64,000 bases of DNA, from contig NZ_CP044016.1 of assembly GCF_004337365.2 (NCBI RefSeq), positions 2,046,001-2,110,000 of the forward strand. Direction: 5' to 3'. The notes under the pieces are model-generated. The model searched no databases, was not told where the DNA came from, and saw only the letters and a program-made list of their open reading frames with translations. The DNA comes from Rhizosphaericola mali (lineage in GTDB: Bacteria; Bacteroidota; Bacteroidia; Chitinophagales; Chitinophagaceae). Both the position numbers and the translations under genes were made by a program. Positions 10,557 to 23,532 of this stretch are shown piece after piece. How positions within the stretch are numbered: position 1 is the stretch's first letter; each line of letters begins with the position of its first letter.

Positions 10557-13500
10557 ATGCATACAAGACTTTTGCAAATTTTAGTCCTCATTTTAATTTT
10601 TTCAATTTATCAATCTTCTGCACAGGTTATACCTTCTGGAAGACAAGCAATCCCTAAAGTTATTGCCAGCAGTCCCCAAGCGGCATCGCTAGGTTCCTAT
10701 GGAGTTAACTCTATTAATATGTTCACAGGCAAACCTACGATTGACTTGAATCTTTATAGTATCACTCAAGGAGATTTCACGTTACCAATCAGTTTGAGTT
10801 ATAATTCAGATCTCATAAAGCCACAAGAGCATGCTGGTATAATGGGATTAGGTTGGATACTTAATGCTGGAGGTGTCATCAACAGAAGTGTCAATGAGGG
10901 TGTGGATGAAATATTGGTGGGTAATGGTGAGAGTCCAGATAATAAATATTCTTACTATGACAATTATGGAACACTAAATAACTCTTCATGGAGTACGACA
11001 TCCTTTCTTCAATCTCTTGGTAATGGTTTCGCGTACGTCCCATCCGGAACCTATGCGAATACAGCTCATCCAAACCCAGATGTGTTTAATTTTTCTGTAG
11101 GTTCAATAAGTGGTTCCTTCTATAAAAATCAAGTAGGTCAATGGGTGATATCCTCTTCCACAGATATTGATTTTAAAATAGAAGATACATTGGCATCGAA
11201 CTATCAAATAACTGAAAAAATTTACGGTGGAAATGCTAGTGCGTCCAGAACGATTAGTGTAAAGCGGATAATATATGGGTTTACCATCACAGATGATAAA
11301 GGGATAAAATATGTATTCGGTCGACAGCCAGGAAGTATAGAATTTTCAGCTAATGCAATGGATGGTACTACATCCTACAATGAAAACTATATAGCTAATG
11401 CATGGTATCTGACCAAAGTGATTCTTCCCAACAGTAATTATAGTTACACACTTGCTTATTCAATGGATAATAGTCCGATATTTAAAGTATATCCAAACTT
11501 CGCGGCGGGCAATTATAAAGTCAATAATGGTTCTGGTAGCTACCAAAATGTCAATTATGCCATTGTTCGCAATTACCAAACCTATCTCACTTCCATTACT
11601 TCTCCAGATATGGAGATAGACTTCTATAGAAGCCACTCTAATGACTTGGATTATAAGATTGCTTCTTTTAATAATACTAATAAAGATAACTGGTCTGCTT
11701 ATGGTACAGATTATGGACCCTATTCATCTAGTGTCCTAACATCGTATGACAATGTTTTACACTGGTACAAACTAGACAGTATGATCGTTAAATCATTGCT
11801 TTCTGGACAAAAAATAAATAAAGTAGTTCCTACTTATTTTGAAAACAGTAATTCGAGGCTTTTTCTTACAGGCCTTAGTTTATATGGCAGCGATACCTCC
11901 ATGGTTAAACGCTATCAATTTGGCTATAACAGCGGTCCTTTACCATCTACCTATCAGACTATGGAACTCGATGATTGGGGCAATTTTAATGGTAAAGATT
12001 TTTTTAATTCCGTTGCAGGGGATAGCTCTCTTGTGTACTCCGTAAACCAATTCAAAAATATTTATCCGACTTACCGCAAACCATCTATGGATTTAAACAT
12101 TGCAGGAGCTGGTTATCTTACTTCCATAACTTATCCTACGGGAGGTACGGACAATATAGAATATGAACTCAATAGCTATTCCAAATATGTGACGGGGAAT
12201 GCATCAACCATTAGTTTTGATGCCATTGATAGCACGCACAATGTATATACTGGTGGGCTTCGAGTACACAAAATAACTACGCTTACGGGTGATAGTTCAA
12301 AACCATTGGTTAGAACATTTTTCTATCAAAGAGATTATTTAGGAGGAGATACGCTAACTAGCGGAGTTGTAGCAGGAGTGCCATCCTATTTTGAAAGTGG
12401 AACAGATAATAACCAGTTTAATTATTATAAATTTAAAATTACTCCCGTTTTAATAGATAATTCAACAAATGGAGCACATGTTACTTACAGCAGGGTCTAC
12501 GAAAAAGGCAGTGATGGTTCTCTTACTCAATATGACTTTACCAATCATGATAACGGTTTTGGGGACAGACCAGCACTGAGTTACACTGAAAATTATATAA
12601 CTTATGATATAAATGGAAAAATTGCTTTCATGAATAAACTCAAATATAATTCCATGGCACATGAAAGAGGTAAACCCCTTTCTATAAAATACTACGATAG
12701 CGCTGCACATCTTTTAAAAAGTGAATCTTATAATTATTTCTTAGATTCAGTTACTACCGATACTAGGATACATGCTGTGGAATTTCAAAGCGAAATGTTT
12801 GGAAAACCAACGGAGGGTTCTATGTCTTTAGATCTTTCTAATATGTTTGAAGCACTTCAACTTTCGGCTTATATCCCTTATTCTTACCATTCACACCTTG
12901 CATCGAAGACAACAACAATGTATTATAGAGCTGGTAGTGATTCGTTGCAGGAGACGCAACGCTTTACCTATAATATTGGCAATACACACCAACTCAGGAC
13001 TTTGGAAACGATGAACTCAAAAGGAAAGTCTACGCGAGAAGGATATAAATATCCAACGGATTTTACGGGTAATACGGTTTATAATGCGATGGTGGGTAAA
13101 AATATGCTTTCTTCCATCGTAGAAGATACAAATAGCGTAAATAATGCCCAAACTGTTTTGTCAAGAACGAATTACCAAGCCATTTACCCCATTTCTGGAA
13201 CGCAAACACCTTTATTCTATTTACCATACAGCTATCAAACACAGTTGGGTAGTGCAACATTATCAGTAGATGATTCTATATTGGCTTATACTTATAAAGG
13301 TGATATCGCGGAAGTTAAACATCGTGACGGCATGAGAGATACTTATATATGGGGGTATAATTTTCAATATCCAGTGGCAAGAATACATAGCCAAACGGTT
13401 ACATACACGACTGCCATCGCTGCAATGGGAGGATCATGGAGTAGTTCTAATAGTCCTTACCTTTCAGATGCGGATATGCGCACCGCTTTAAATAACCTAC

Positions 13501-14702
13501 GCAGTGCATTGTCTTCGTCAGGTGCAGATATTTTTACCTATACGCACAATCCCCTCATTGGTATTACAAGTGAAACTGATCCCACTGGAAAAATTTCCTA
13601 TTATCAATATGATCCATTAGGACGACTAATTAGAATTTTAGATAATGATAAGAATATTGTGCGTACTATAAGTTATAACTATAGGAATGGATCACCGAAC
13701 TTAATATATAAAAATACAGCTAAGTCCGGATCTTTTACGGTGAATACTTGCTCTGCAAATCTCACGGGAGAAACAGTTACATATACTGTAGCGGCTGGAA
13801 AGTATGAATCTACGGTAAGTCAGGCCGCTGCAGACCAATTGGCTCAAAATGATGTTGATACAAACGGGCAAAATTATGCTAATTCTAATGGAGGATGCAA
13901 AGCGCTTATTAGTATCAACAATATTAATATGTTCAGCGCTTCTGTTATGGGAGTACTAAATTTTATAGGCCAAGATAGCTCCACTTATTCTATTGGTGCA
14001 TCCGGAAGCGGTACTTCCTTATTATTACCCACAGGAGCATACACAGTAGTATTTAATACGCCAGGTGCAAATGCATTAATTGATGTTAATGGGACCCAAA
14101 AGGTCGTAAATACGCCTGCGGGAGGTGCAACAACTCTTGGAAATTTTTCAATTTACCAACCTTATACCATAACAGGATATTCTACCTACTATGGAAATAC
14201 AGCACAGAGTCAAATATTTACTAAAAATAATTGTGCTTCTGGCTTACAAGGCTCACAAGTTACTTATACTGTTTCTGCTAACAGTTACTATTCATCTATC
14301 TCCCAAAGTGATGCCAACCAAAAAGCTACAGCAAATATCAATGCAAATGGACAAACATATGCCAATAATGTGGGAACTTGTAGTGCGCTTGTTTCCATTA
14401 CTCTTCAAAAAACATCATCAGTAAGTACATTTAATCCAGTTACTGTTCAAATAAGTTCTTCTGGGAATTCCAATATTGGCACTTATAATTTCCCGTCAAG
14501 TAATACGGGTAGCACAACCATTAGTCTACCAGCAGGAACTTATCAATTAAAGTTTACGCTTCCAAGTACAACTCCATATAATGTACCATTTACGTTAAAT
14601 GGTAGTCAAATAGCCAATATTGCCTCAGGGTTAACTACAACAGGTTCTGCAACTTTATCAGCTGGTACAAATTATACGCTTAAAGCCGTAATTGGAAGAT
14701 AA
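10557..14702 (+). CDS. giant secreted RHS/YD-repeat protein with two DUF5977 domains
   Basis: From ATG 10557 the protein has 1381 residues and a clear signal peptide (QILVLILIFSIYQSSAQ). Most of it is a beta-rich shell of the type seen before YD repeats, opening with PQAASLGSYGVNSINMFTGK. A YD-repeat signature (YYQYDPLGRLIRILDN) lies near residue 1015. Two DUF5977-like repeats follow near 1060-1115 and 1218-1275, each Cys-bounded and ending in NGQNYAN/NGQTYAN. Beta-sandwich segments come last. It lacks the RHS core and a toxin tip, so it is a shell or surface protein rather than the toxin. It is the first gene of the cluster, 49 bp before the Sel1 gene. TTG 10533 was rejected as start because it would displace the signal peptide. 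Confidence 0.75.
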   Translation: MHTRLLQILVLILIFSIYQSSAQVIPSGRQAIPKVIASSPQAASLGSYGVNSINMFTGKPTIDLNLYSITQGDFTLPISLSYNSDLIKPQEHAGIMGLGWILNAGGVINRSVNEGVDEILVGNGESPDNKYSYYDNYGTLNNSSWSTTSFLQSLGNGFAYVPSGTYANTAHPNPDVFNFSVGSISGSFYKNQVGQWVISSSTDIDFKIEDTLASNYQITEKIYGGNASASRTISVKRIIYGFTITDDKGIKYVFGRQPGSIEFSANAMDGTTSYNENYIANAWYLTKVILPNSNYSYTLAYSMDNSPIFKVYPNFAAGNYKVNNGSGSYQNVNYAIVRNYQTYLTSITSPDMEIDFYRSHSNDLDYKIASFNNTNKDNWSAYGTDYGPYSSSVLTSYDNVLHWYKLDSMIVKSLLSGQKINKVVPTYFENSNSRLFLTGLSLYGSDTSMVKRYQFGYNSGPLPSTYQTMELDDWGNFNGKDFFNSVAGDSSLVYSVNQFKNIYPTYRKPSMDLNIAGAGYLTSITYPTGGTDNIEYELNSYSKYVTGNASTISFDAIDSTHNVYTGGLRVHKITTLTGDSSKPLVRTFFYQRDYLGGDTLTSGVVAGVPSYFESGTDNNQFNYYKFKITPVLIDNSTNGAHVTYSRVYEKGSDGSLTQYDFTNHDNGFGDRPALSYTENYITYDINGKIAFMNKLKYNSMAHERGKPLSIKYYDSAAHLLKSESYNYFLDSVTTDTRIHAVEFQSEMFGKPTEGSMSLDLSNMFEALQLSAYIPYSYHSHLASKTTTMYYRAGSDSLQETQRFTYNIGNTHQLRTLETMNSKGKSTREGYKYPTDFTGNTVYNAMVGKNMLSSIVEDTNSVNNAQTVLSRTNYQAIYPISGTQTPLFYLPYSYQTQLGSATLSVDDSILAYTYKGDIAEVKHRDGMRDTYIWGYNFQYPVARIHSQTVTYTTAIAAMGGSWSSSNSPYLSDADMRTALNNLRSALSSSGADIFTYTHNPLIGITSETDPTGKISYYQYDPLGRLIRILDNDKNIVRTISYNYRNGSPNLIYKNTAKSGSFTVNTCSANLTGETVTYTVAAGKYESTVSQAAADQLAQNDVDTNGQNYANSNGGCKALISINNINMFSASVMGVLNFIGQDSSTYSIGASGSGTSLLLPTGAYTVVFNTPGANALIDVNGTQKVVNTPAGGATTLGNFSIYQPYTITGYSTYYGNTAQSQIFTKNNCASGLQGSQVTYTVSANSYYSSISQSDANQKATANINANGQTYANNVGTCSALVSITLQKTSSVSTFNPVTVQISSSGNSNIGTYNFPSSNTGSTTISLPAGTYQLKFTLPSTTPYNVPFTLNGSQIANIASGLTTTGSATLSAGTNYTLKAVIGR

Positions 14703-14751
14703 ATTTTAAATCTTGAATAGATAAAGATGATGAATATAAATTTAGAATAGT

Positions 14752-15984
14752 ATGCTTAAAATATCTTATTTATTAATATTACTCCATTTAATTTCAGTTA
14801 GAATTTGGTCGCAAAATATGGATAGTATAACACTGGCCCATATACGACAAGCGCGAACCTTCTATCAATTGGGGCAGCAATACCGCACAGGTACAGACGT
14901 TCCAATGGATTATGGCAAAGCCGTCGAGCAATTTGAAAAAGCAGCAGCTTTGGGGGATCCGCACGGCCAGTACGCTCTGGCCTACATGTCCTATAAGGGG
15001 CTTGGTTGCTCACAAGATTATGGAAAAGCTGTCAGTCTTTTTCGTCAAGGAGCTTTGCAGGGATACGATAATGCCATGTATTTCTATGGTTTGTGTTTAC
15101 GCAATGGCTACGGAATCGCCGCCAATAAGGACAGTGCAACGTATTGGTTGAAATATGCGGATTCTTTGGGAAGTAAACAAGCCCAGATGGAGCTTGCTGC
15201 CATATCAGCAGAAAATAGGGCGGACTCTGCAAAGGAACTATTGGAAAATATCCATAATGCAGCTCTGCCATCAACGGGGTCCATGAACAGTTTTGTACGT
15301 ATACCTGGTCATTTTCCCGTTGGTGATATTATCAACGGTAGGTATAAAGGTTATCTTTTACAATATGACTGGAGTGGTAAAAATCTCGTGCAGGCGAAAT
15401 CCATGGAGTTGGAACTGGGTAGCTTTGCTTCAAAAATAAGTGGGCAGTGGGTGGAAAGTGGTACGGATTCTTTCCATTTCTCTGCATCCTTAAGCGGAGA
15501 CTCTTTGGTATTTGAACCTACGACGTATGGTAGAACAGATCACTACAGTCCAGACAGTGCTTTATCCTATAGCTTAAAAGGCGCTGCATTTAATATCGTT
15601 CAAGGAGTTGATAGGATTTATTTGGCTGGAAATGTTACAATGTTTTCTGAAGATCGCGGAGAACCCTCTAAACCCATTGTTTTGGCATTGACGCGGGAAG
15701 TAAAAACCGAACAAAAGGATATTTTACTTACTGATACGAAGGTTTATCCTAATCCGTTCCATGATGTTTTAAATATCAGTTTTTCTTTGGGAGCAGAAGC
15801 TATGGTATCCTTGTCCTTAAATAGCATTTCAGGACAACAGGTGTATCAAAAAGCGGCACAGAAACTTTTTACGGGAACCTATAATTTCAGCCTACAGCCA
15901 CCCGCAGGATTGGCCCCCGGTGTTTATTTTTTGCAAGTATCGGTAAACGGTAAAATACATTCATTCAAGGCTGTCAAGATTTAA
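14752..15984 (+). CDS. Sel1-repeat protein with T9SS type A sorting domain
   Basis: The 410-residue secreted protein begins with a signal peptide. Residues 30-150 hold three Sel1-like (TPR-type) repeats (YGKAVEQFEKAAALGDPHGQ, then YGKAVSLFRQGALQGYDNAM). A beta-rich middle part follows. A C-terminal type IX sorting domain starts at KVYPNPFHDVLNISF and contains APGVYFLQVSVNGKIHSFK. The tail predicts export by the type IX system and attachment to, or release from, the surface. It is 13 bp upstream of the toxin-bearing RHS gene, so it is part of the same operon. A scaffold or delivery role for its RHS neighbours is inferred. Confidence 0.8.
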   Translation: MLKISYLLILLHLISVRIWSQNMDSITLAHIRQARTFYQLGQQYRTGTDVPMDYGKAVEQFEKAAALGDPHGQYALAYMSYKGLGCSQDYGKAVSLFRQGALQGYDNAMYFYGLCLRNGYGIAANKDSATYWLKYADSLGSKQAQMELAAISAENRADSAKELLENIHNAALPSTGSMNSFVRIPGHFPVGDIINGRYKGYLLQYDWSGKNLVQAKSMELELGSFASKISGQWVESGTDSFHFSASLSGDSLVFEPTTYGRTDHYSPDSALSYSLKGAAFNIVQGVDRIYLAGNVTMFSEDRGEPSKPIVLALTREVKTEQKDILLTDTKVYPNPFHDVLNISFSLGAEAMVSLSLNSISGQQVYQKAAQKLFTGTYNFSLQPPAGLAPGVYFLQVSVNGKIHSFKAVKI

Positions 15985-15997
15985 CCCAAAACTTTTT

Positions 15998-18900
15998 ATG
16001 ATATACAGATTAAGATTATTCGCTTTTTTAATATTATTACTTTGTATCTCTACTGTAGTAAATGCTCAGACGAGCGCCCAAAATTATATAGCCACTTGGT
16101 CCGCCATGGCCCCTGAGGCGAGTGCAACCAACCTGCTTACACGTCCGGGCAAGGATGTACAATTGGGAGTACAGTACTTTGATGGACTCGGTAGACCGAT
16201 GCAAACCGTTATCCGTCAAGGCTCTTTAATAACTGGAGCTACGGCTGGTGATTTGGTAACCCCTATCGAATACGATAGTTATGGTAGGCAATCCAAAAAC
16301 TACTTGCCATATGCAGCTTCAGCTACAGACGCAGGTTTTAAAAGTAGTGCCACCTCTGCACAATCGACTTTTTATGCATCAGGCAATCCCTCCAGTCCGG
16401 TTGCAGGTCAAGGTGAAAACTTGTTTTATAGTCAAACCAATTTTGAACTATCTCCTCTGGATCGCCCGATAAAAACGCTGGCTCCGGGTAACAGTTGGTT
16501 GGGGGCAGCAAAAGGGGTTGCTACTGGTTACTATGCAAATACAACAGCAGATGGTGTGCGTATTTGGAATGTTACCATAGGAAGTAGCAGCGGAAGTATC
16601 TTAAGTTCTTATGCCAGTCTATCTACTTATGGTGTGGGACAACTTTATAAAACAATTACTACAGACGAAGCTGATAAACAGGTCATAGAATTTAAGGACA
16701 AGGATGGCCTTGTAGTTCTAAAAAAAGTGCAACTTACAGGCAGCGCGGATGATGGTTCTGGACAGGGTCATGACGGATGGCTTTGTACTTATTATATGTA
16801 CGATGATTTAGGGAATCTACGCTGTGTCATACAGCCTGAAGGCGTTAAAACCCTTTCTTCTTCTGGATGGGTATTGAGCCAAACAACGAACGCCAAAGTT
16901 TTATCTGAACAATGTTTTCGCTACGAATACGATGGTCGTAATAGAATGACGATCAAGAAAGTTCCTGGTGCAGGTCCAGTATATACAGTCTATGACGCAC
17001 GTGATTTACCTGTAATGGTGCAGGATTCTACCTTGCGAGCTTTGGGCACTTGGAATGTTACTAAATATGATAATCTGAACCGTCCTTATAAAACTTATCA
17101 GACGTCTAATAGTACCGCATTTGCCACTTTGTTATCGGCAGCTTACAACGTCTCCCCCTATATTCCTTCTGGGGATAGCTCCAATATACTGACAGTAACC
17201 CATTATGATGATTATAACGGGCTTCCAGCAGGATTGTCATCTTCCATGCTGACAACTTGGAACACTTATTTTTCTGCTACGAGCACTTCCTGGCCATATC
17301 CAGTAATGCCCGCGAAAAATAGTACGATCACAACCAAGGGTTTGGTGACTTGGTCACAGGTAAAGTTACTTGGAAGCTCCACCTACTTGTCTTCAGCAAA
17401 CATATATGATGACAAGGGACGGGTGGTGCAGATACAATCACAAAATGTAACCGGTGGTATAGACGTATCGACCACTCAGTACAGCTGGAATGGCAAACCT
17501 CTTATTACCGTCAACAAGACCCAAAAAGTAGGGACAAAACCAGATACGACCGTTATCGTCAACCGTTACACCTATGATGAGCTTTGGAGAACGATAAAAG
17601 AGGAAACAAAAATAGCCTATTCTAAAGTACGCAAGGATACCGCTAGTGATTGGCTTGTATTGTCGCAGAGTAGTTATGACGCTATTGGTCAGCTAAAACG
17701 TAAACTCGTAGGGCTTAAAAGAAACGGTAATACAAATACGTATCTTTCTACGCCTATTGATACACTAGACTATGATTATAATATCAGGGGATGGTTATTG
17801 GGCGTTAATAGAGCTTATACCAAAGAAGGGGTTACAACCGATAATACCACACCTCCCTTGGGTGAAGGCTACGCGGAACCGTCAGGAACGCTCTATGATC
17901 CAGCTTCCCGACTTTGGGGTTTTGATCTTGCCTACGACAAGATAGCATCGGCCTTAATTAATGGTCAATCCTATAATACCACAGCCCAGTTAACGGGCAA
18001 CATTGCAGGTATGGCATGGAAAACAAATAGTCATGGTAGAGTAAGAAAATATGATTTTAATTACGATGCCTCGAATAGGCTTACCGGTGCTACTTTTGGT
18101 CAGTACACAGGAAGTGCATTTTCCAACACCACTGTGAATTATAATGTATCTGGGTTGACATATGATAACAATGGCAATATCACTGCCATGAACCAATACG
18201 GGCTGAAAACCTCGTCCAATAGCTCTGCTCTGGTGGATCAGTTGACTTATACCTACCAGAGTGGCAGCAATAAATTGGCAAAAGTGGCAGATGCCGTAAG
18301 TAATGCGTCTGAAAACTTGGGGGATTTTCAAAATGGAACCAATACGGATGATGATTACGCCTACGATGGTAATGGAAATTTGACAAAAGACCAGAACAAA
18401 ACAATTTCCTCCATAACGTATAATTACCTAAATTTACCGCAGGTAGTCACGGTGACTGGCACAGGTACGGTTACCTATGTGTATGATGCATCTGGAAACA
18501 AGTGGAAAAAAGCGGTTTATAATCAGGCAACGGGAAAAACCGATTCCACACTATACTTGGGTAATAACCAGTACCGCAATGACACATTACAGTTCTTTGG
18601 CACAAGTGAAGGTAGAGTCAGGACAAAGGATAGTACGGGATTAATACTGGACTATTTCTTTAAGGATCATTTAGGAAATGTTCGCTTAGTAGTAACTGAT
18701 CAATATGGTCTACAAAGCCCCATTCTTGAAGAAACTCATTACTATCCGTTCGGGCTCACAATGAAGGGAATATCTTCAAGTCAGAGCAACCCGATGCTGA
18801 CAAACAAGGACAAGACGTTCCAAGGACAGAAGTTCGATGATGAGTTAGGACTTGATTGGTTAGAATTTAAATACCGTAATCATGATCCACAAATCGGTAG

Positions 18901-19582
18901 ATTTATTGAAATCGATCCTCTGGCAGATCAGTATGAATACAATAGTACTTATGCATTTAGTGAAAATAAAGTCACAGGAAATGTAGAGTTAGAAGGGTTG
19001 GAATCTGTGACAGTACCAACTCCCGAAGGTCCAATACCAATGGTTCCGATTGTACAAAATCCTTCTGCTTCACACAGTGGGCCTCGTCCTCAAACATTGG
19101 GAGAAGCATTGCACGATCTTATTGTAAATACTGCGTCTTTTTTACGTGAAGCAATTATAACAACTGCCACAAGTACAGTAGCAAATGGATATCGATTACA
19201 CGCTTTGCTTTCTGAAGGTTCTAATGAAAAAAAAGATGTTGACGGTGTTAGACCACAGACACTTGTTAAATCAAATGGCGTTAGCAAACAGAATAAGACG
19301 AATACAGAAACGGGATCCTATACAAATACACATAAAAGTGGTAAGACTTATAGTGGAAAGGGAAGTAAAAGTAGGTCTCAAAAATCAGCCAAAAGGGTTG
19401 AGAGAGAAAATAATGATCCTCATATAGCTACAGATTTTACTCCAGCTAATTCAGAACGTGACGCTTTTAAAGATGAGGATACACGCATTGAACAAAATGG
19501 AGGACATGGTAATTCCTCTAAAAATTATAATAGAAGAGCATCTCCTGGTAAAAAATATAAAAAACAAGATAATACACCTTAA
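15998..19582 (+). CDS. RHS-core protein with DUF6443 start and GIY-YIG-like C-terminal nuclease toxin
   Basis: The 1194-residue polymorphic toxin has a signal peptide (LLLCISTVVNAQ) and a DUF6443-type N-terminal domain (PGKDVQLGVQYFDGLGRPMQ). YD repeats follow, then the RHS-associated core at about residues 886-1000 (KDHLGNVRLVVTDQYG ... YYPFGLTMKG ... PQIGRFIEIDPLADQY). The variable tip after about residue 1010 ends in a GIY-YIG-like motif. GSY and YSG are separated by nine residues (GSYTNTHKSGKTYSG), and basic residues and a later Glu follow (ERDAFKDEDTRIEQ). This suggests a DNA-cutting toxin. The LRR gene 8 bp downstream is its probable immunity protein. GIY-YIG is a by-eye call; other nuclease folds are possible. 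Confidence 0.8.
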   Translation: MIYRLRLFAFLILLLCISTVVNAQTSAQNYIATWSAMAPEASATNLLTRPGKDVQLGVQYFDGLGRPMQTVIRQGSLITGATAGDLVTPIEYDSYGRQSKNYLPYAASATDAGFKSSATSAQSTFYASGNPSSPVAGQGENLFYSQTNFELSPLDRPIKTLAPGNSWLGAAKGVATGYYANTTADGVRIWNVTIGSSSGSILSSYASLSTYGVGQLYKTITTDEADKQVIEFKDKDGLVVLKKVQLTGSADDGSGQGHDGWLCTYYMYDDLGNLRCVIQPEGVKTLSSSGWVLSQTTNAKVLSEQCFRYEYDGRNRMTIKKVPGAGPVYTVYDARDLPVMVQDSTLRALGTWNVTKYDNLNRPYKTYQTSNSTAFATLLSAAYNVSPYIPSGDSSNILTVTHYDDYNGLPAGLSSSMLTTWNTYFSATSTSWPYPVMPAKNSTITTKGLVTWSQVKLLGSSTYLSSANIYDDKGRVVQIQSQNVTGGIDVSTTQYSWNGKPLITVNKTQKVGTKPDTTVIVNRYTYDELWRTIKEETKIAYSKVRKDTASDWLVLSQSSYDAIGQLKRKLVGLKRNGNTNTYLSTPIDTLDYDYNIRGWLLGVNRAYTKEGVTTDNTTPPLGEGYAEPSGTLYDPASRLWGFDLAYDKIASALINGQSYNTTAQLTGNIAGMAWKTNSHGRVRKYDFNYDASNRLTGATFGQYTGSAFSNTTVNYNVSGLTYDNNGNITAMNQYGLKTSSNSSALVDQLTYTYQSGSNKLAKVADAVSNASENLGDFQNGTNTDDDYAYDGNGNLTKDQNKTISSITYNYLNLPQVVTVTGTGTVTYVYDASGNKWKKAVYNQATGKTDSTLYLGNNQYRNDTLQFFGTSEGRVRTKDSTGLILDYFFKDHLGNVRLVVTDQYGLQSPILEETHYYPFGLTMKGISSSQSNPMLTNKDKTFQGQKFDDELGLDWLEFKYRNHDPQIGRFIEIDPLADQYEYNSTYAFSENKVTGNVELEGLESVTVPTPEGPIPMVPIVQNPSASHSGPRPQTLGEALHDLIVNTASFLREAIITTATSTVANGYRLHALLSEGSNEKKDVDGVRPQTLVKSNGVSKQNKTNTETGSYTNTHKSGKTYSGKGSKSRSQKSAKRVERENNDPHIATDFTPANSERDAFKDEDTRIEQNGGHGNSSKNYNRRASPGKKYKKQDNTP

Positions 19583-19589
19583 TATATTT

Positions 19590-20447
19590 ATGGCAATAAT
19601 AATAAAAGAAGGATTTAAATTTTTTGAAAATACATCTGGTAAAAACGTCGAATTAATAATAGATGTATCTCGAATTGAAGAGTCAATGAATTATTATAAG
19701 AAAAATAAAGTTGATGGAATCATTATTTCACCTGCACACGGATATAATATTGAAAATGTAGACTTTCTTAAAAAGTATTCTTTTATTAAAAATGTTTCAA
19801 TATCAGATATACCTAATATTGATGGATTATTTTTCTTAAAAAAATTAGAATCTTTGTATATCTCTGGAACAGACCTTCATATTGATTTTGCAAATTTTCC
19901 AAATCTAAAAAAATTAATAGTTGATTGGAGCCCATTTGTTATAAATATAAATGAATGTAGAGCTCTGGAGATTTTATCTTTATACAAATATAAACCTGCA
20001 TCAAAAGATTTATCAGAATTTTCAGAAATTGATAGTCTAAAATCTTTAACGATAACCCAATCTACAGTTAATTCCTTGAATGGATTGGATAGTTTAAAAA
20101 AAATGGAGAATTTAGAACTAAACTATTGTAATAAATTACTAAAGTTAGGTCATTTAGAAGGTTGTAAATATAATTTAACTCAATTATTAATAGATCATTG
20201 TAAAAATATCGAAAATTATGAATACGTCAAGTTATTAAATGCTTTAAAAATATTGGCATTTAATAATTGTGGTTCAATCTCTTCGATTCAATTTATTAAA
20301 GAAATGTCTAATCTAAAAGATTTTAGGTTTGTAGGCACCTCCGTTATTGACGGGGATTTAACTCCGTGTGTTGGTTTAGAACATGTAGGCTTTTTTGATA
20401 AGAAACATTATTCACATACTTACAATAGTTTAAATAAAAACAGTTAA
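19590..20447 (+). CDS. leucine-rich-repeat protein, probable immunity partner of the RHS toxin
   Basis: This 285-residue cytoplasmic protein (no signal peptide) is made of irregular leucine-rich repeats, about nine units of 20-24 residues (LKKLESLYISGTDLHIDF, LKSLTITQSTVNSLNGLDSL, MENLELNYCNKLLKLGHL). ATG 19590 lies 7 bp after the toxin gene's stop. The longer open frame overlaps the toxin gene and is not used. LRR proteins are known as immunity proteins next to polymorphic toxins. The very low GC compared with the RHS gene fits a toxin/immunity tip acquired by exchange. Direct evidence of neutralisation is lacking. Confidence 0.65.
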   Translation: MAIIIKEGFKFFENTSGKNVELIIDVSRIEESMNYYKKNKVDGIIISPAHGYNIENVDFLKKYSFIKNVSISDIPNIDGLFFLKKLESLYISGTDLHIDFANFPNLKKLIVDWSPFVININECRALEILSLYKYKPASKDLSEFSEIDSLKSLTITQSTVNSLNGLDSLKKMENLELNYCNKLLKLGHLEGCKYNLTQLLIDHCKNIENYEYVKLLNALKILAFNNCGSISSIQFIKEMSNLKDFRFVGTSVIDGDLTPCVGLEHVGFFDKKHYSHTYNSLNKNS

Positions 20448-20616: not shown

Positions 20617-21852
20617 TTATCGACTTTTAAACATATTCTGCATTTCCTTTATTGCATTAATTCTTTTGGATTTGACATAAGACATAAAGGTTCTTTCTGA
20701 GTTGTGACCAGTGATAGCCATTATGGTTTGTATATTGATACCTCTTTTATACATATTTGTTGCAAAACTCCTTCTAGCAGTATGTGTTGTAACAAGACGG
20801 TAAAAAGGTTCGTTCATGGAAACCTTTCGTCCTCCTTTACTAATGGAGTAAGCAACATCATCAGTAAAGCCCGCCATTTTTACAATATCTTTAATCCTTC
20901 GATTAATTTGCCATTCACTGATTGAATTTGGTAATACTCCTCCATATTTGACAATAGTTTTCTTCACGATAGGATGTAAAGGAATGTCAATATATTCAGC
21001 GGTCTTTTCACTTCTTAGCGAAATTACATTACCATGAACATGACTTTTAGTAATTTCCAACAAATTACCAACTCTCAAACCTAACCAGCAGGATGCTACA
21101 AATAAATCTCGGATGACTTCATCTTGTGAATTATTTTCTAAGTGCATTTTATTTAAGGTTTTTATCTGGTCTTCTGACAGATAAACTGAGAAACTCTCTT
21201 CTGATGTCTTTTTGAAGCGTTTGCTTTTAAATTTGAAGTTGGAGTGTAGTTCTCTTTCTTCCGCCTCTGCCATAAAGAATTTGATATGCTTTACTTCTTT
21301 ACCTATTGTATTTACAGAATACTCTTTTTCCAATTGACAATAAGAAACATAGGCATTATAAAAATCCATGTCAATACTTTCAAAATGTACAGGTCTCTTA
21401 TAACACTCTTTTTGAAAGGACTTCAGATTTTTAAGTGTCGTCCGGTATTGCGCTAATGTACCAGATGTGCGGTTGAGTGTAGGAATTAATTTTTCCATGA
21501 ATTGTATAAGACTTCCGCCTTCTGACAAATCTATTCGGACTTTTTCCGCCTTCTTTATCTCAACTTGCTTTATTTGCTGCTTGAATTTTACAAGTATATT
21601 TTGTTCCTTATTCTGTATCAAATCTGTTAGTTTTGAAACAGCACTTGCACCAAAGAATTGTAGATAATTATTAAATTCCATCGTTTCGGAAGAGGTACCC
21701 CTTGCTCGTTGTGCATTTTCATTCCAATTAGCTGGTTTTATGACCTTGCCGGTGCTTATGGTAATTCTTTTACCGTGACAATACAAATAGAGCATTACTG
21801 TTGAACGTCCTTGTTTATTGAGTTTGTTGCTGAGATAAAAACGAGGTTCCAT
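20617..21852 (-). CDS. tyrosine site-specific recombinase (integrase A)
   Basis: The 411-residue integrase has an arm-type N-terminal domain (residues 1-90), a SAM-like core-binding domain (110-210) and a catalytic domain. The catalytic Arg is in CWLGLRVGNLLEITK. The second box is HTARRSFATNMYKRG, and the final His and Tyr are in ITGHNSERTFMSYVK. It recombines short att sites for integration or excision of a Bacteroidota mobile element. It is transcribed away from the att-like repeat at 22010 and stands back to back with integrase B, so it may serve a separate element lying to the left (RHS cluster, mob module A). Its own att sites were not found. Confidence 0.85.
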   Translation of the reverse strand: MEPRFYLSNKLNKQGRSTVMLYLYCHGKRITISTGKVIKPANWNENAQRARGTSSETMEFNNYLQFFGASAVSKLTDLIQNKEQNILVKFKQQIKQVEIKKAEKVRIDLSEGGSLIQFMEKLIPTLNRTSGTLAQYRTTLKNLKSFQKECYKRPVHFESIDMDFYNAYVSYCQLEKEYSVNTIGKEVKHIKFFMAEAEERELHSNFKFKSKRFKKTSEESFSVYLSEDQIKTLNKMHLENNSQDEVIRDLFVASCWLGLRVGNLLEITKSHVHGNVISLRSEKTAEYIDIPLHPIVKKTIVKYGGVLPNSISEWQINRRIKDIVKMAGFTDDVAYSISKGGRKVSMNEPFYRLVTTHTARRSFATNMYKRGINIQTIMAITGHNSERTFMSYVKSKRINAIKEMQNMFKSR

Positions 21853-22009
21853 GATAATAAATTTTTACTTACAATTACTTACAGTATTTTGGATATTTAC
21901 TTAAAATAAAGATAATCTATTTTCACAAAATATATTATAACTATTTGGTAAATAGTTGATTATATTAATATTTATTAAAGTGTATTAAACTCTATTTATG
22001 CTAAATAAG

Positions 22010-22024
22010 TCCCAGCGGGATCAC
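22010..22024. repeat. attL: 15-bp direct repeat at the left end of the 22-kb element
   Basis: TCCCAGCGGGATCAC is repeated exactly at 44003-44017. It reads like a tRNA 3' end: T-stem CCCAG, acceptor strand CGGGATC, discriminator A. A hairpin follows it, as one follows the other copy. The integrase-B gene starts 264 bp to the right. No complete tRNA is attached to either copy, so an intact tRNA would lie elsewhere, for instance at the far end of a tandem array. Confidence 0.7.
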
Positions 22025-22068
22025 AGAAAGCAGTAGAACAAAGTTAAACTGATTTCAATAAAATTAAA

Positions 22069-22101
22069 AAAGCCGTGTAAATCAATAGATTACACGGCTT
22101 T
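22069..22101 (+). terminator. hairpin downstream of attL
   Basis: Stem AAAGCCGTGTAA (22069-22080) pairs with 22090-22101 around the loop ATCAATAGA, with A-rich and T-rich flanks. The same loop core recurs in a different stem after the right att copy (44024-44070). It is likely the terminator of the tRNA gene that is rebuilt at the att site. Confidence 0.65.
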
Positions 22102-22161
22102 CTTGTTAAGTGTCGTTAAGTTAAATATTTAAATAATTAAGAACTCCAAGGTGAGCAGATA

Positions 22162-22194
22162 GGTTAGCAACATTTTGTCTAACTTGTGCTAACC
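22162..22194. promoter_or_regulatory. inverted GGTTAGCA motifs: probable integrase arm sites, left end
   Basis: GGTTAGCA at 22162-22169 faces TGCTAACC at 22187-22194. The same 8-mer is found twice in direct orientation at 43924-43931 and 43936-43943, just inside the right att. Tyrosine integrases bind such arm-type repeats with their N-terminal domain. Confidence 0.6.
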
Positions 22195-22287
22195 TTTGAA
22201 AAGCCGAAATGCTTATCCACATTACGTTTCACAAGGTTAAGACAGTAATAAAAATAGTAATGTTTTTCTGTTTTAGCCACAAAAAAA

Positions 22288-23532
22288 ATGTTGGTTATGG
22301 CAAAACTTAATCCCACTTTATCCATCTTATTTTGGCTTAATCGCCAAAGAAGTAAAAACGAAACTTTTCCAATTTACGCCCGTATTACACTGAATGGGAA
22401 GCGGATGGAATTATCCACTCATTTGTATCTAAATCCATCTCAATGGGACCAAAAGAATCAGCGTGTGAAAGGGGCTGGAGAACAATCTCGTAAAATCAAT
22501 ATTTCTCTTACGCAAATTTCAGGTTCCTTGCAGGGATTATATACAAAATTATCTCTACTAGAAAGTCCGATATCATTAGAAATATTGAAAAATACCTATT
22601 TGGGGAAAAAGGTTAATCAAAAAAGTTTGCTGGAAGTCTTTGCTTTGCATAATCAAAGATTCTTCGCAAAAGTCGCATCTGGTCGCAACAGTGATCGTAC
22701 CTACAAAAGATATGAAATAACAAAAGAGAAAGTTTCTACATTCCTAAATGAACAGTATAAGTTAGACGATCTACCGTTGTCTCAAATACAGTTTGGCTTA
22801 GCATCTGATTTCGAACATTACCTGTGTAACGTGACCAAGATTGGTTCCAATACAGCCATGAAATACATCAAAATCACAAAACAGGTTTTGAAGTTCGCTG
22901 TAGATCAAGGATGGATACCCTATAATCCAATTGGAGGATTTAAGTGCAACTATGAAAATCCACAAAGGGAAATTCTAACTATGGAAGAAATTGAAAGAAT
23001 TTATAATAAATCTTTACTACCTAGATTGGCGCAAGTGAGGGATGTATATATATTTTGTTGTTTTACCGGATTAGCATTTACGGATGTAATGCAGCTTACG
23101 GCTAGCAATATTATAACTGGCATGGATGGCGAAAAATGGATTATAACAGATCGTCAAAAAACAGGAACATTGGAAGAAGTTCCGCTTTTACCTGTTGCTC
23201 TTGAAATTTTGGAGAAGTATAGCTGTAATATAGTATTACAGAAAAAGAAACAATTACTTCCTTTATGTAGCAATCAACGCTTTAATGGTTATTTACAGGA
23301 AATTGCAGATATCTGTGGCATAGATAAACATCTTACATCTCATACGGCAAGACATACTTTTGCAACTACCGTTACACTCGAAAATGATGTACCAATTGAA
23401 ACAGTTAGCCGAATGTTGGGACATAAAAGCATTCGGACTACTCAAATTTATGCGAAAATAACCCGAAAGAAGATTAGCAACAATATGCGCACTTTAAAAG
23501 ACAAACTTAAAATGGGTAGTGAAGCACACTAA
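22288..23532 (+). CDS. tyrosine site-specific recombinase (integrase B)
   Basis: This 414-residue integrase has an arm-binding N-terminal domain (SILFWLNRQRSKNETFPIYA), a SAM-like core-binding domain (about 110-210) and a catalytic domain. The catalytic domain shows the second box HTARHTFATTVTLEND, GHKSIRTTQIYAKI with the final His and the nucleophilic Tyr, and a first box FCCFTGLAFTDVMQLT. In that first box the usual Arg position reads Ala-Phe-Thr-Asp. This TGLAFTD variant is common in Bacteroidota integrases. It reads inward from the left att and is the enzyme expected to move the 22-kb element. ATG 22297 is an alternative start. Confidence 0.9.
   Translation: MLVMAKLNPTLSILFWLNRQRSKNETFPIYARITLNGKRMELSTHLYLNPSQWDQKNQRVKGAGEQSRKINISLTQISGSLQGLYTKLSLLESPISLEILKNTYLGKKVNQKSLLEVFALHNQRFFAKVASGRNSDRTYKRYEITKEKVSTFLNEQYKLDDLPLSQIQFGLASDFEHYLCNVTKIGSNTAMKYIKITKQVLKFAVDQGWIPYNPIGGFKCNYENPQREILTMEEIERIYNKSLLPRLAQVRDVYIFCCFTGLAFTDVMQLTASNIITGMDGEKWIITDRQKTGTLEEVPLLPVALEILEKYSCNIVLQKKKQLLPLCSNQRFNGYLQEIADICGIDKHLTSHTARHTFATTVTLENDVPIETVSRMLGHKSIRTTQIYAKITRKKISNNMRTLKDKLKMGSEAH

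What the first reader, a model, noticed from the sequence alone, without database searches (positions are those of the whole stretch)
10557..20447. Secreted RHS trio with a T9SS-tailed Sel1 protein, nuclease tip and LRR immunity protein
Two giant secreted RHS proteins enclose a Sel1 protein with a type IX sorting domain, with gaps of 49 and 13 bp. Only the second RHS protein has the core and a toxic tip. The first has paired DUF5977 domains instead. All have signal peptides, so delivery goes through the periplasm and probably type IX export rather than a type VI needle. This may be a distinct contact-dependent toxin apparatus of Bacteroidota with a separate surface anchor and shell.
Basis: partly seen in the sequence, partly recalled or inferred. 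Interest (0 to 1): 0.6.

Follow-up and report, generated by a model that had tools for sequence, protein, structure and literature searches.

The report
Split RHS toxin with swappable exporter
[quoted passage not shown] in most related bacteria an outer-membrane barrel-like protein sits there instead, which suggests how such bacteria may move these toxins to their surface.

Summary
In detail: P1 (10557-14702), P2 (14752-15984), P3 (15998-19582) and an LRR gene (to 20447) are co-directional, with the stated gaps and domains. The word 'nuclease' for the tip rests only on a GIY-YIG-like residue pattern; no profile supports it.

P1 and P3 are two halves of one shell. Across 395 Bacteroidota genomes they co-occur (52 genomes with both, 10 and 6 with one). 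58 of 63 strong P1 places have P3's marker domain just downstream, sometimes in one reading frame. The P1 model matches TcB of Tc toxins (Z 16 over 612 residues) and P3 matches TcC. Relatives' tips fall into 62 families over a shared core, some with known antibacterial toxin domains.

The trio recurs, but only in one Arachidicoccus-like clade. In 41 of 62 RHS loci not chosen for P2, the third gene is instead an unnamed signal-peptide, coiled-coil, barrel-like protein; no locus has both. More distant P2 relatives stand directly before non-RHS variable effectors.

Best reading: a split TcB/TcC-type RHS toxin whose surface display needs a P2/T9SS partner. Export is inferred. T9SS-neighbouring SpvB/TcdB RHS proteins were already reported in Apibacter, so this is a new variant, not a new kind.

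The parts
10557..14702 (+). P1, 1381 aa: N-terminal half of the RHS shell (TcB-like), signal-peptide-like start, SpvB-like N-terminal region
   Evidence: ORF; RHS repeat and DUF5977 x2; AlphaFold2 model of residues 27-1061 matches TcB (Foldseek E 7e-18, VIA Z 16.0, 612 aligned, rmsd 3.4) and the SpvB N-terminal domain (Z 15.4, 232 aligned)
13710..14384 (+). C-terminal tail of P1 with two DUF5977 domains (about residues 1052-1118 and 1212-1276)
14752..15984 (+). P2, 410 aa: signal-peptide-like start, Sel1 repeats (about 14863-15195), beta-rich middle (by eye), T9SS type A sorting domain (15742-15978)
   Evidence: relatives at RHS loci and at non-RHS effector loci
15998..19582 (+). P3, 1194 aa: C-terminal half of the RHS shell (TcC-like) with signal-peptide-like start, DUF6443 (16097-16531), Rhs core (18740-18997) and variable tip
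   Evidence: model matches TcC and Rhs shells (4igl_B TM-score on target 0.59; VIA Z 13-14); profile hits YenC2
18998..19579 (+). Toxin tip of P3; GIY-YIG-like residue order in about 19313-19579, no profile match
   Evidence: low GC
19593..20447 (+). LRR protein, presumed immunity protein, 10 bp after P3 (ORF can open at GTG 19458)
   Evidence: position after the tip and low GC

Best explanation
This is a split RHS polymorphic toxin of the TcB/TcC kind. P1 (SpvB-like region plus the first half of the RHS spiral, DUF5977 tail) and P3 (second half, core, toxin tip) are exported separately by Sec and close together in the periplasm into one cocoon that holds the P3 tip. Neither half has a T9SS sorting domain. 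The neighbouring P2, a Sel1 scaffold with a T9SS type A sorting domain, binds the cocoon and, with T9SS, carries or anchors it at the cell surface; in most relatives an outer-membrane barrel-like protein does this job. On contact with another bacterium the tip is released and acts inside it; the LRR protein protects the producer. Shown here: gene order, domains, phylum-wide P1-P3 pairing and fusion, shell folds by model, tip polymorphism, recurrence of P2 where relatives have the barrel gene, a P2 clade specific to RHS loci. Inferred: assembly in the periplasm, P2 binding, T9SS export, contact delivery, toxicity of this tip, immunity by the LRR protein.
For: P1-P3 pairing: 52 genomes with both, 10 P1 only, 6 DUF6443 only, of 395 (Fisher p 9e-48), and 58 of 63 strong P1 places have DUF6443 downstream on the same strand. 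Fusion of both in one ORF of about 2.6 kaa (L109). Folds. Polymorphism: 78 tips in 62 families while 69 of 78 core pieces form one family, with a gene directly downstream in 71; Tae4, colicin E5, CDI EC869-like, HNH, EndoU and REase domains among the tips. P2 beside RHS genes in L134 (= L235), L137, L163, L234, L236, L237 (P1 only, contig end), L238 and L247. Barrel 41, P2 2, both 0, neither 19 among the 62 named loci not chosen for P2 (the 66 less four P2-selected loci); middle genes (TRX, SPY, 143-aa) occur with either partner. Barrel absent from this genome. P2-type RHS loci form one exclusive clade in the P3 tree (7 leaves, support 0.51) and in the P2 tree (8 leaves, support 0.96). Other P2 relatives sit directly before variable secreted proteins, among them one with Endonuclea_NS_2 and one with DUF3289. 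SprA of T9SS is in the genome.
Against: No T9SS sorting domain in P1 or P3. The P2 association is confined to one clade, so it may go back to a single event. 19 of 62 RHS pairs have neither partner by these profiles, so neither is strictly required. SprA is split in two frames in this assembly and PorU was found only weakly. No interaction, secretion or toxicity data exist.
Confidence: 0.55

Rival explanations
1. The RHS pair is a real polymorphic toxin, but P2 and T9SS play no part; the pair leaves the periplasm by another route (vesicles, lysis, an unknown channel) and P2 is a passenger gene.
For: 19 of 62 named loci have neither P2 nor the barrel; P1 and P3 have no sorting domain.
Against: P2 is kept beside RHS genes at several loci although the P2 proteins are only about 42-50% identical and the gene order varies; its relatives also sit directly before unrelated secreted proteins.
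Confidence: 0.25
2. A Tc-like toxin against eukaryotes (insects, amoebae): P1-P3 are B and C subunits that dock on a TcA-type pore.
For: Best Foldseek matches of P1 are TcB and TcB-TcC, and P3 matches TcC.
Against: Relatives' tips include bacterial-wall and colicin-type domains (Tae4, colicin E5, CDI-like) and are followed by a separate gene; Pfam TcB mid-region models did not appear for P1. TcA was not sought.
Confidence: 0.08
3. A T6SS Rhs effector delivered by a needle.
For: P3's shell also resembles T6SS Rhs effectors.
Against: Both halves begin with a Sec-signal-like stretch and no PAAR or VgrG domain was found; the shell is split over two chains.
Confidence: 0.02
4. A surface or adhesion structure rather than a weapon, with a decayed or inactive tip.
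For: The tip has no recognised domain; RHS folds also occur in adhesion proteins such as teneurins.
Against: Tip polymorphism with recognised toxin domains in relatives; low-GC tip plus downstream gene.
Confidence: 0.1

Closest known systems
SpvB/TcdB-type RHS proteins beside T9SS type A sorting-domain proteins in Apibacter (PMC8125069)
   Same: RHS proteins with TcB-like N-terminus, next to a T9SS type A protein, proposed to be T9SS-linked
   Different: Here the shell is split over two genes, the T9SS protein is a Sel1 protein, and most relatives have a barrel-like protein in its place; the family studied is Chitinophagaceae
TcdB/TcaC class of polymorphic toxins (PMC3482391) and the TcB-TcC (BC) component of Tc toxins
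   Same: Signal peptide, SpvB-like region, RHS cocoon, variable C-terminal tip, two-chain B/C division
   Different: P1 gave no Pfam hit for SpvB or the TcdB mid region, ends in DUF5977, and is accompanied by P2 or a barrel-like protein; TcA was not sought
TANFOR polymorphic toxins (PMC7073777)
   Same: Bacteroidetes toxins with signal peptide, T9SS substrates encoded nearby, export by T9SS proposed
   Different: No TANFOR domain; RHS shell
SprB-SprF/PorP pairs of T9SS (own knowledge, not tested)
   Same: A T9SS-exported protein encoded with its own outer-membrane barrel protein
   Different: The barrel-like protein here has a long coiled-coil part, no Pfam match over cut-off, and accompanies RHS proteins without a sorting domain

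Membership tests
RHS polymorphic toxin | RHS-associated core domain | tested here: met
   TIGR03696 in P3, E 2e-11
RHS polymorphic toxin | Variable C-terminal tip after a conserved core, with a gene directly downstream | tested here: met
   62 tip families in 78 relatives, 71 with a downstream gene; GC step in the window
RHS polymorphic toxin | RHS cocoon fold | tested here: met
   Models of P1 and P3 against PDB; predicted, each half alone
RHS polymorphic toxin | Tip is toxic and neutralised by the downstream protein | not testable with these tools
   Needs expression tests; only a GIY-YIG-like residue order
TcdB/TcaC (TcB-TcC) class | SpvB domain at the N-terminus | tested here: inconclusive
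   Structure match to SpvB N-terminal domain, Z 15.4, 232 residues, rmsd 3.5; no Pfam hit
TcdB/TcaC (TcB-TcC) class | Beta-propeller between SpvB and RHS parts | tested here: inconclusive
   TcB aligned over 612 residues with gaps; no propeller or mid-region model in the Pfam output
TcdB/TcaC (TcB-TcC) class | Shell made of two chains, B and C | tested here: met
   P1-P3 pairing and folds; that they bind was not tested
TcdB/TcaC (TcB-TcC) class | TcA-type pore partner | not tested
   Not sought
T9SS substrate | C-terminal sorting domain on P2 | tested here: met
   TIGR04183 and PF18962
T9SS substrate | C-terminal sorting domain on P1 and P3 | tested here: not met
   No hit in Pfam or NCBIfam
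T9SS substrate | T9SS machinery in the genome | tested here: inconclusive
   SprA present but in two frames; PorU only weak; other components not sought
T6SS Rhs effector | PAAR or VgrG domain, no Sec signal | tested here: not met
   No PAAR or VgrG hit; hydrophobic N-termini
TANFOR toxin | TANFOR domain TIGR02542 | tested here: not met
   Not among the NCBIfam hits of the four proteins

The most novel reading that the evidence does not exclude
P2-type Sel1 proteins are portable T9SS adaptors: they lend their sorting domain to toxins that have none, and have replaced an unrelated outer-membrane barrel-like exporter in one clade. The barrel, the small thioredoxin-fold or Spy-like helper and the two half-shells would then make up an undescribed periplasm-assembled delivery apparatus of Bacteroidota.
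Probability: 0.3. Interest if true: 0.75.

Novelty: new variant of a known kind. Interest (0 to 1): 0.5.

Why it matters
How toxins without a sorting domain leave Bacteroidota cells is an open question raised for TANFOR and Apibacter RHS toxins (PMC7073777, PMC8125069). Here the same RHS pair exists with two different third partners, which makes the question testable by single-gene deletions, and the P2 family links T9SS to RHS toxins and to a second, non-RHS set of variable secreted proteins.

Tried and rejected
P2 as a remote relative of the barrel protein: hhalign gives no match. PADLOC: no match. Tip relatives: none in 198 genomes, plasmids, phages, viral contigs or PDB. GIY-YIG: residue order fits (0 of 78 other tips, 30 of 20,000 shuffles), but the pattern was written after seeing the tip and no profile agrees, so it is not claimed. 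Attachment repeats of a mobile element: only weak 23-32 bp repeats. Collection scan with the P1 alignment: too diverse, so P3 was used, which biases the 80 named loci towards close P3 relatives. Promoter and terminator scan: promoters 57 against 44 (sd 6) and terminators 9 against 7 in shuffles, not used. Barrel match to TssC in Pfam is below cut-off and taken as chance. The barrel nature is read from the sequence (Gly-rich C-terminal half, aromatic end in many members), not modelled. Literature searches found no description of the split pair with its partners; most subscription journals are not held.

Full report
What is there. The window carries P1 (10557-14702), P2 (14752-15984), P3 (15998-19582) and an LRR gene (19593-20447) in one direction with gaps of 49, 13 and 10 bp. 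All three large proteins begin with a hydrophobic stretch (read from the sequence; not run through a predictor). The window is G000:C1:2046001-2110000, and this is the only DUF6443 locus in the genome.

P1 and P3 are one unit. In 59 genomes mostly of the same family and order, P1 and DUF6443 matches fall side by side. Of 40 fetched regions, most show P1 directly upstream of P3 on the same strand, and one genome has P1 and P3 matches in a single ORF of 2599 aa, with a second fused-length ORF of 2575 aa in which the P1 part was detected only by the search. Over 395 genomes of the phylum, 62 hold P1, 58 hold DUF6443 and 52 both (p 9e-48); 58 of 63 strong P1 places have DUF6443 downstream on the same strand within 9 kb. 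Only two P1 candidates per genome were scored, so counts are lower bounds, and related genomes are not independent, so the p-value is only a guide.

Folds. An AlphaFold2 model of P1 residues 27-1061 (pLDDT 73, pTM 0.79, 53 sequences) has TcB and TcB-TcC entries as its best Foldseek matches (4igl_C E 7e-18). VIA-align gives Z 16.0 with 612 residues aligned at 3.4 A to TcB, and Z 15.4 over 232 residues to the SpvB N-terminal domain, with T6SS Rhs shells within one Z unit. The P3 model (pLDDT 72, residues after about 917 not modelled) matches TcC (4igl_B, TM-score on target 0.59) and other Rhs shells at Z 13-14. Sequence profiles agree: P3 with YenC2, P1 weakly with bacterial teneurin-like proteins. 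So P1 and P3 look like the B and C halves of one cocoon; their binding to each other was not modelled.

Toxin character. In 78 relatives the last 140 residues fall into 62 families, whereas 69 of 78 core pieces form one family. A gene follows directly in 71 cases. Recognised tip domains include Tae4, colicin E5, CDI EC869-like, Tox-HNH-EHHH, EndoU, AHH, Ntox44, Tox-REase-7, M91 and CHAP. In the window, GC drops from 0.43 to 0.245 over tip and LRR gene. The window tip itself has no relatives found and no profile match. Its residues follow a GIY-YIG-like order (G-Y, Y-G, R, E, N), seen in 30 of 20,000 shuffles and in none of 78 other tips, which is suggestive only. The core motif reads ELEG in the window where most relatives read DPxG.

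The third partner. In 41 of the 62 named P1-P3 loci, which were not chosen for P2, a protein of mostly 470-520 aa accompanies the pair: a signal-like N-terminus, a long helical part and a barrel-like C-terminal half. It is absent from the window's genome and, in 395 genomes of the phylum, found only in the same family apart from weak matches in two genomes. P2 relatives occur beside RHS genes in Arachidicoccus (L134 = L235; L137) and in L163, L234, L236, L237, L238 and L247, as P2-P1-P3 or with P2 before P3; L238 and L137 have nearly the same P3, and L237 shows only P1 before the contig end. No locus has both P2 and the barrel. The small middle gene (a glutathione-peroxidase/thioredoxin-fold protein, a Spy-like protein, or a 143-aa protein) occurs with either partner: for example P2-P1-143aa-P3 in L163 and barrel-P1-143aa-P3 in L158 and L175. 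In trees, the P2-type loci are an exclusive clade by P3 (support 0.51) and by P2 (support 0.96). This suggests one replacement of the barrel gene by P2, kept since. Four of the P2 loci were fetched because they hold P2, so they do not count for frequency.

P2 beyond RHS. P2 relatives are in 17 of 294 genomes of the family. The more distant ones lie in another cluster, where P2 is mostly followed directly by a secreted protein, many with a shared N-terminus (MKKIIL...LIP...) and a variable remainder, once with an Endonuclea_NS_2 domain and once with DUF3289. P2 is thus attached to two unrelated kinds of variable secreted protein, which is the best support for a role in export or display.

Mechanism. 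Sec export of P1 and P3, closure into a cocoon in the periplasm, and P2-assisted T9SS display are inferred from anatomy and association. SprA is present, although split into two overlapping frames next to a run of six G; PorU was only weakly detected. No sorting domain lies on P1 or P3, so a partner is needed if T9SS is the route. 19 of 62 pairs have neither partner recognised here, so other partners or routes exist.

Known and new. The TcdB/TcaC class of polymorphic toxins (signal peptide, SpvB, RHS) is described in PMC3482391. RHS proteins with SpvB/TcdB domains beside T9SS type A proteins are reported in Apibacter (PMC8125069). T9SS-linked export of TANFOR toxins is proposed in PMC7073777. 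New here, as far as the held library shows, are the phylum-wide split into paired half-shells, the exchange between a barrel-like and a Sel1/T9SS partner, and the second set of variable secreted proteins with the same P2 family.

Noticed in passing
L240:1857-5912, L243:7808-15845, L245:4680-12873, L246:7210-15838, L248:9053-13635, L249:3983-11614, L251:5846-13027: A non-RHS cluster: P2-type Sel1/T9SS protein directly before a secreted protein with a shared N-terminus and variable, sometimes toxin-like C-terminus; in L246 with a transglutaminase-like and an O-antigen-ligase-like protein upstream. May be another T9SS-linked polymorphic toxin class.
   Followed up: partly
L139:9246-9875, L147:9441-9956, L195:9631-9963, L158:9511-9942: Small secreted genes between the two RHS halves: glutathione-peroxidase/thioredoxin fold, Spy/DUF4890-like, or an unnamed 143-aa protein; possible periplasmic folding helpers.
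   Followed up: partly
L092:10396-11832, L094:167-1657, L106:4880-6289: Unnamed family of mostly 470-520 aa: signal-like start, coiled coil, barrel-like C-terminal half, found beside RHS pairs; no Pfam family.
   Followed up: partly
L281:469-7766 (G000:C1:3776968-3784265): The SprA gene of the window's genome is read in two overlapping frames, with a run of six G in the overlap; assembly error or real frameshift.
   Followed up: partly
window:6717-8278 and 20617-23532: MobA-type relaxase and NikA-like mobilisation genes left of the locus and two tyrosine recombinases right of it: the toxin locus may be cargo of a mobilisable element; no attachment repeats found.
   Followed up: partly
L144:14966-23591, L155:14798-25050, L184:15989-23324: Arrays of partial RHS core pieces downstream of P3, like displaced spare tips.
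   Followed up: no
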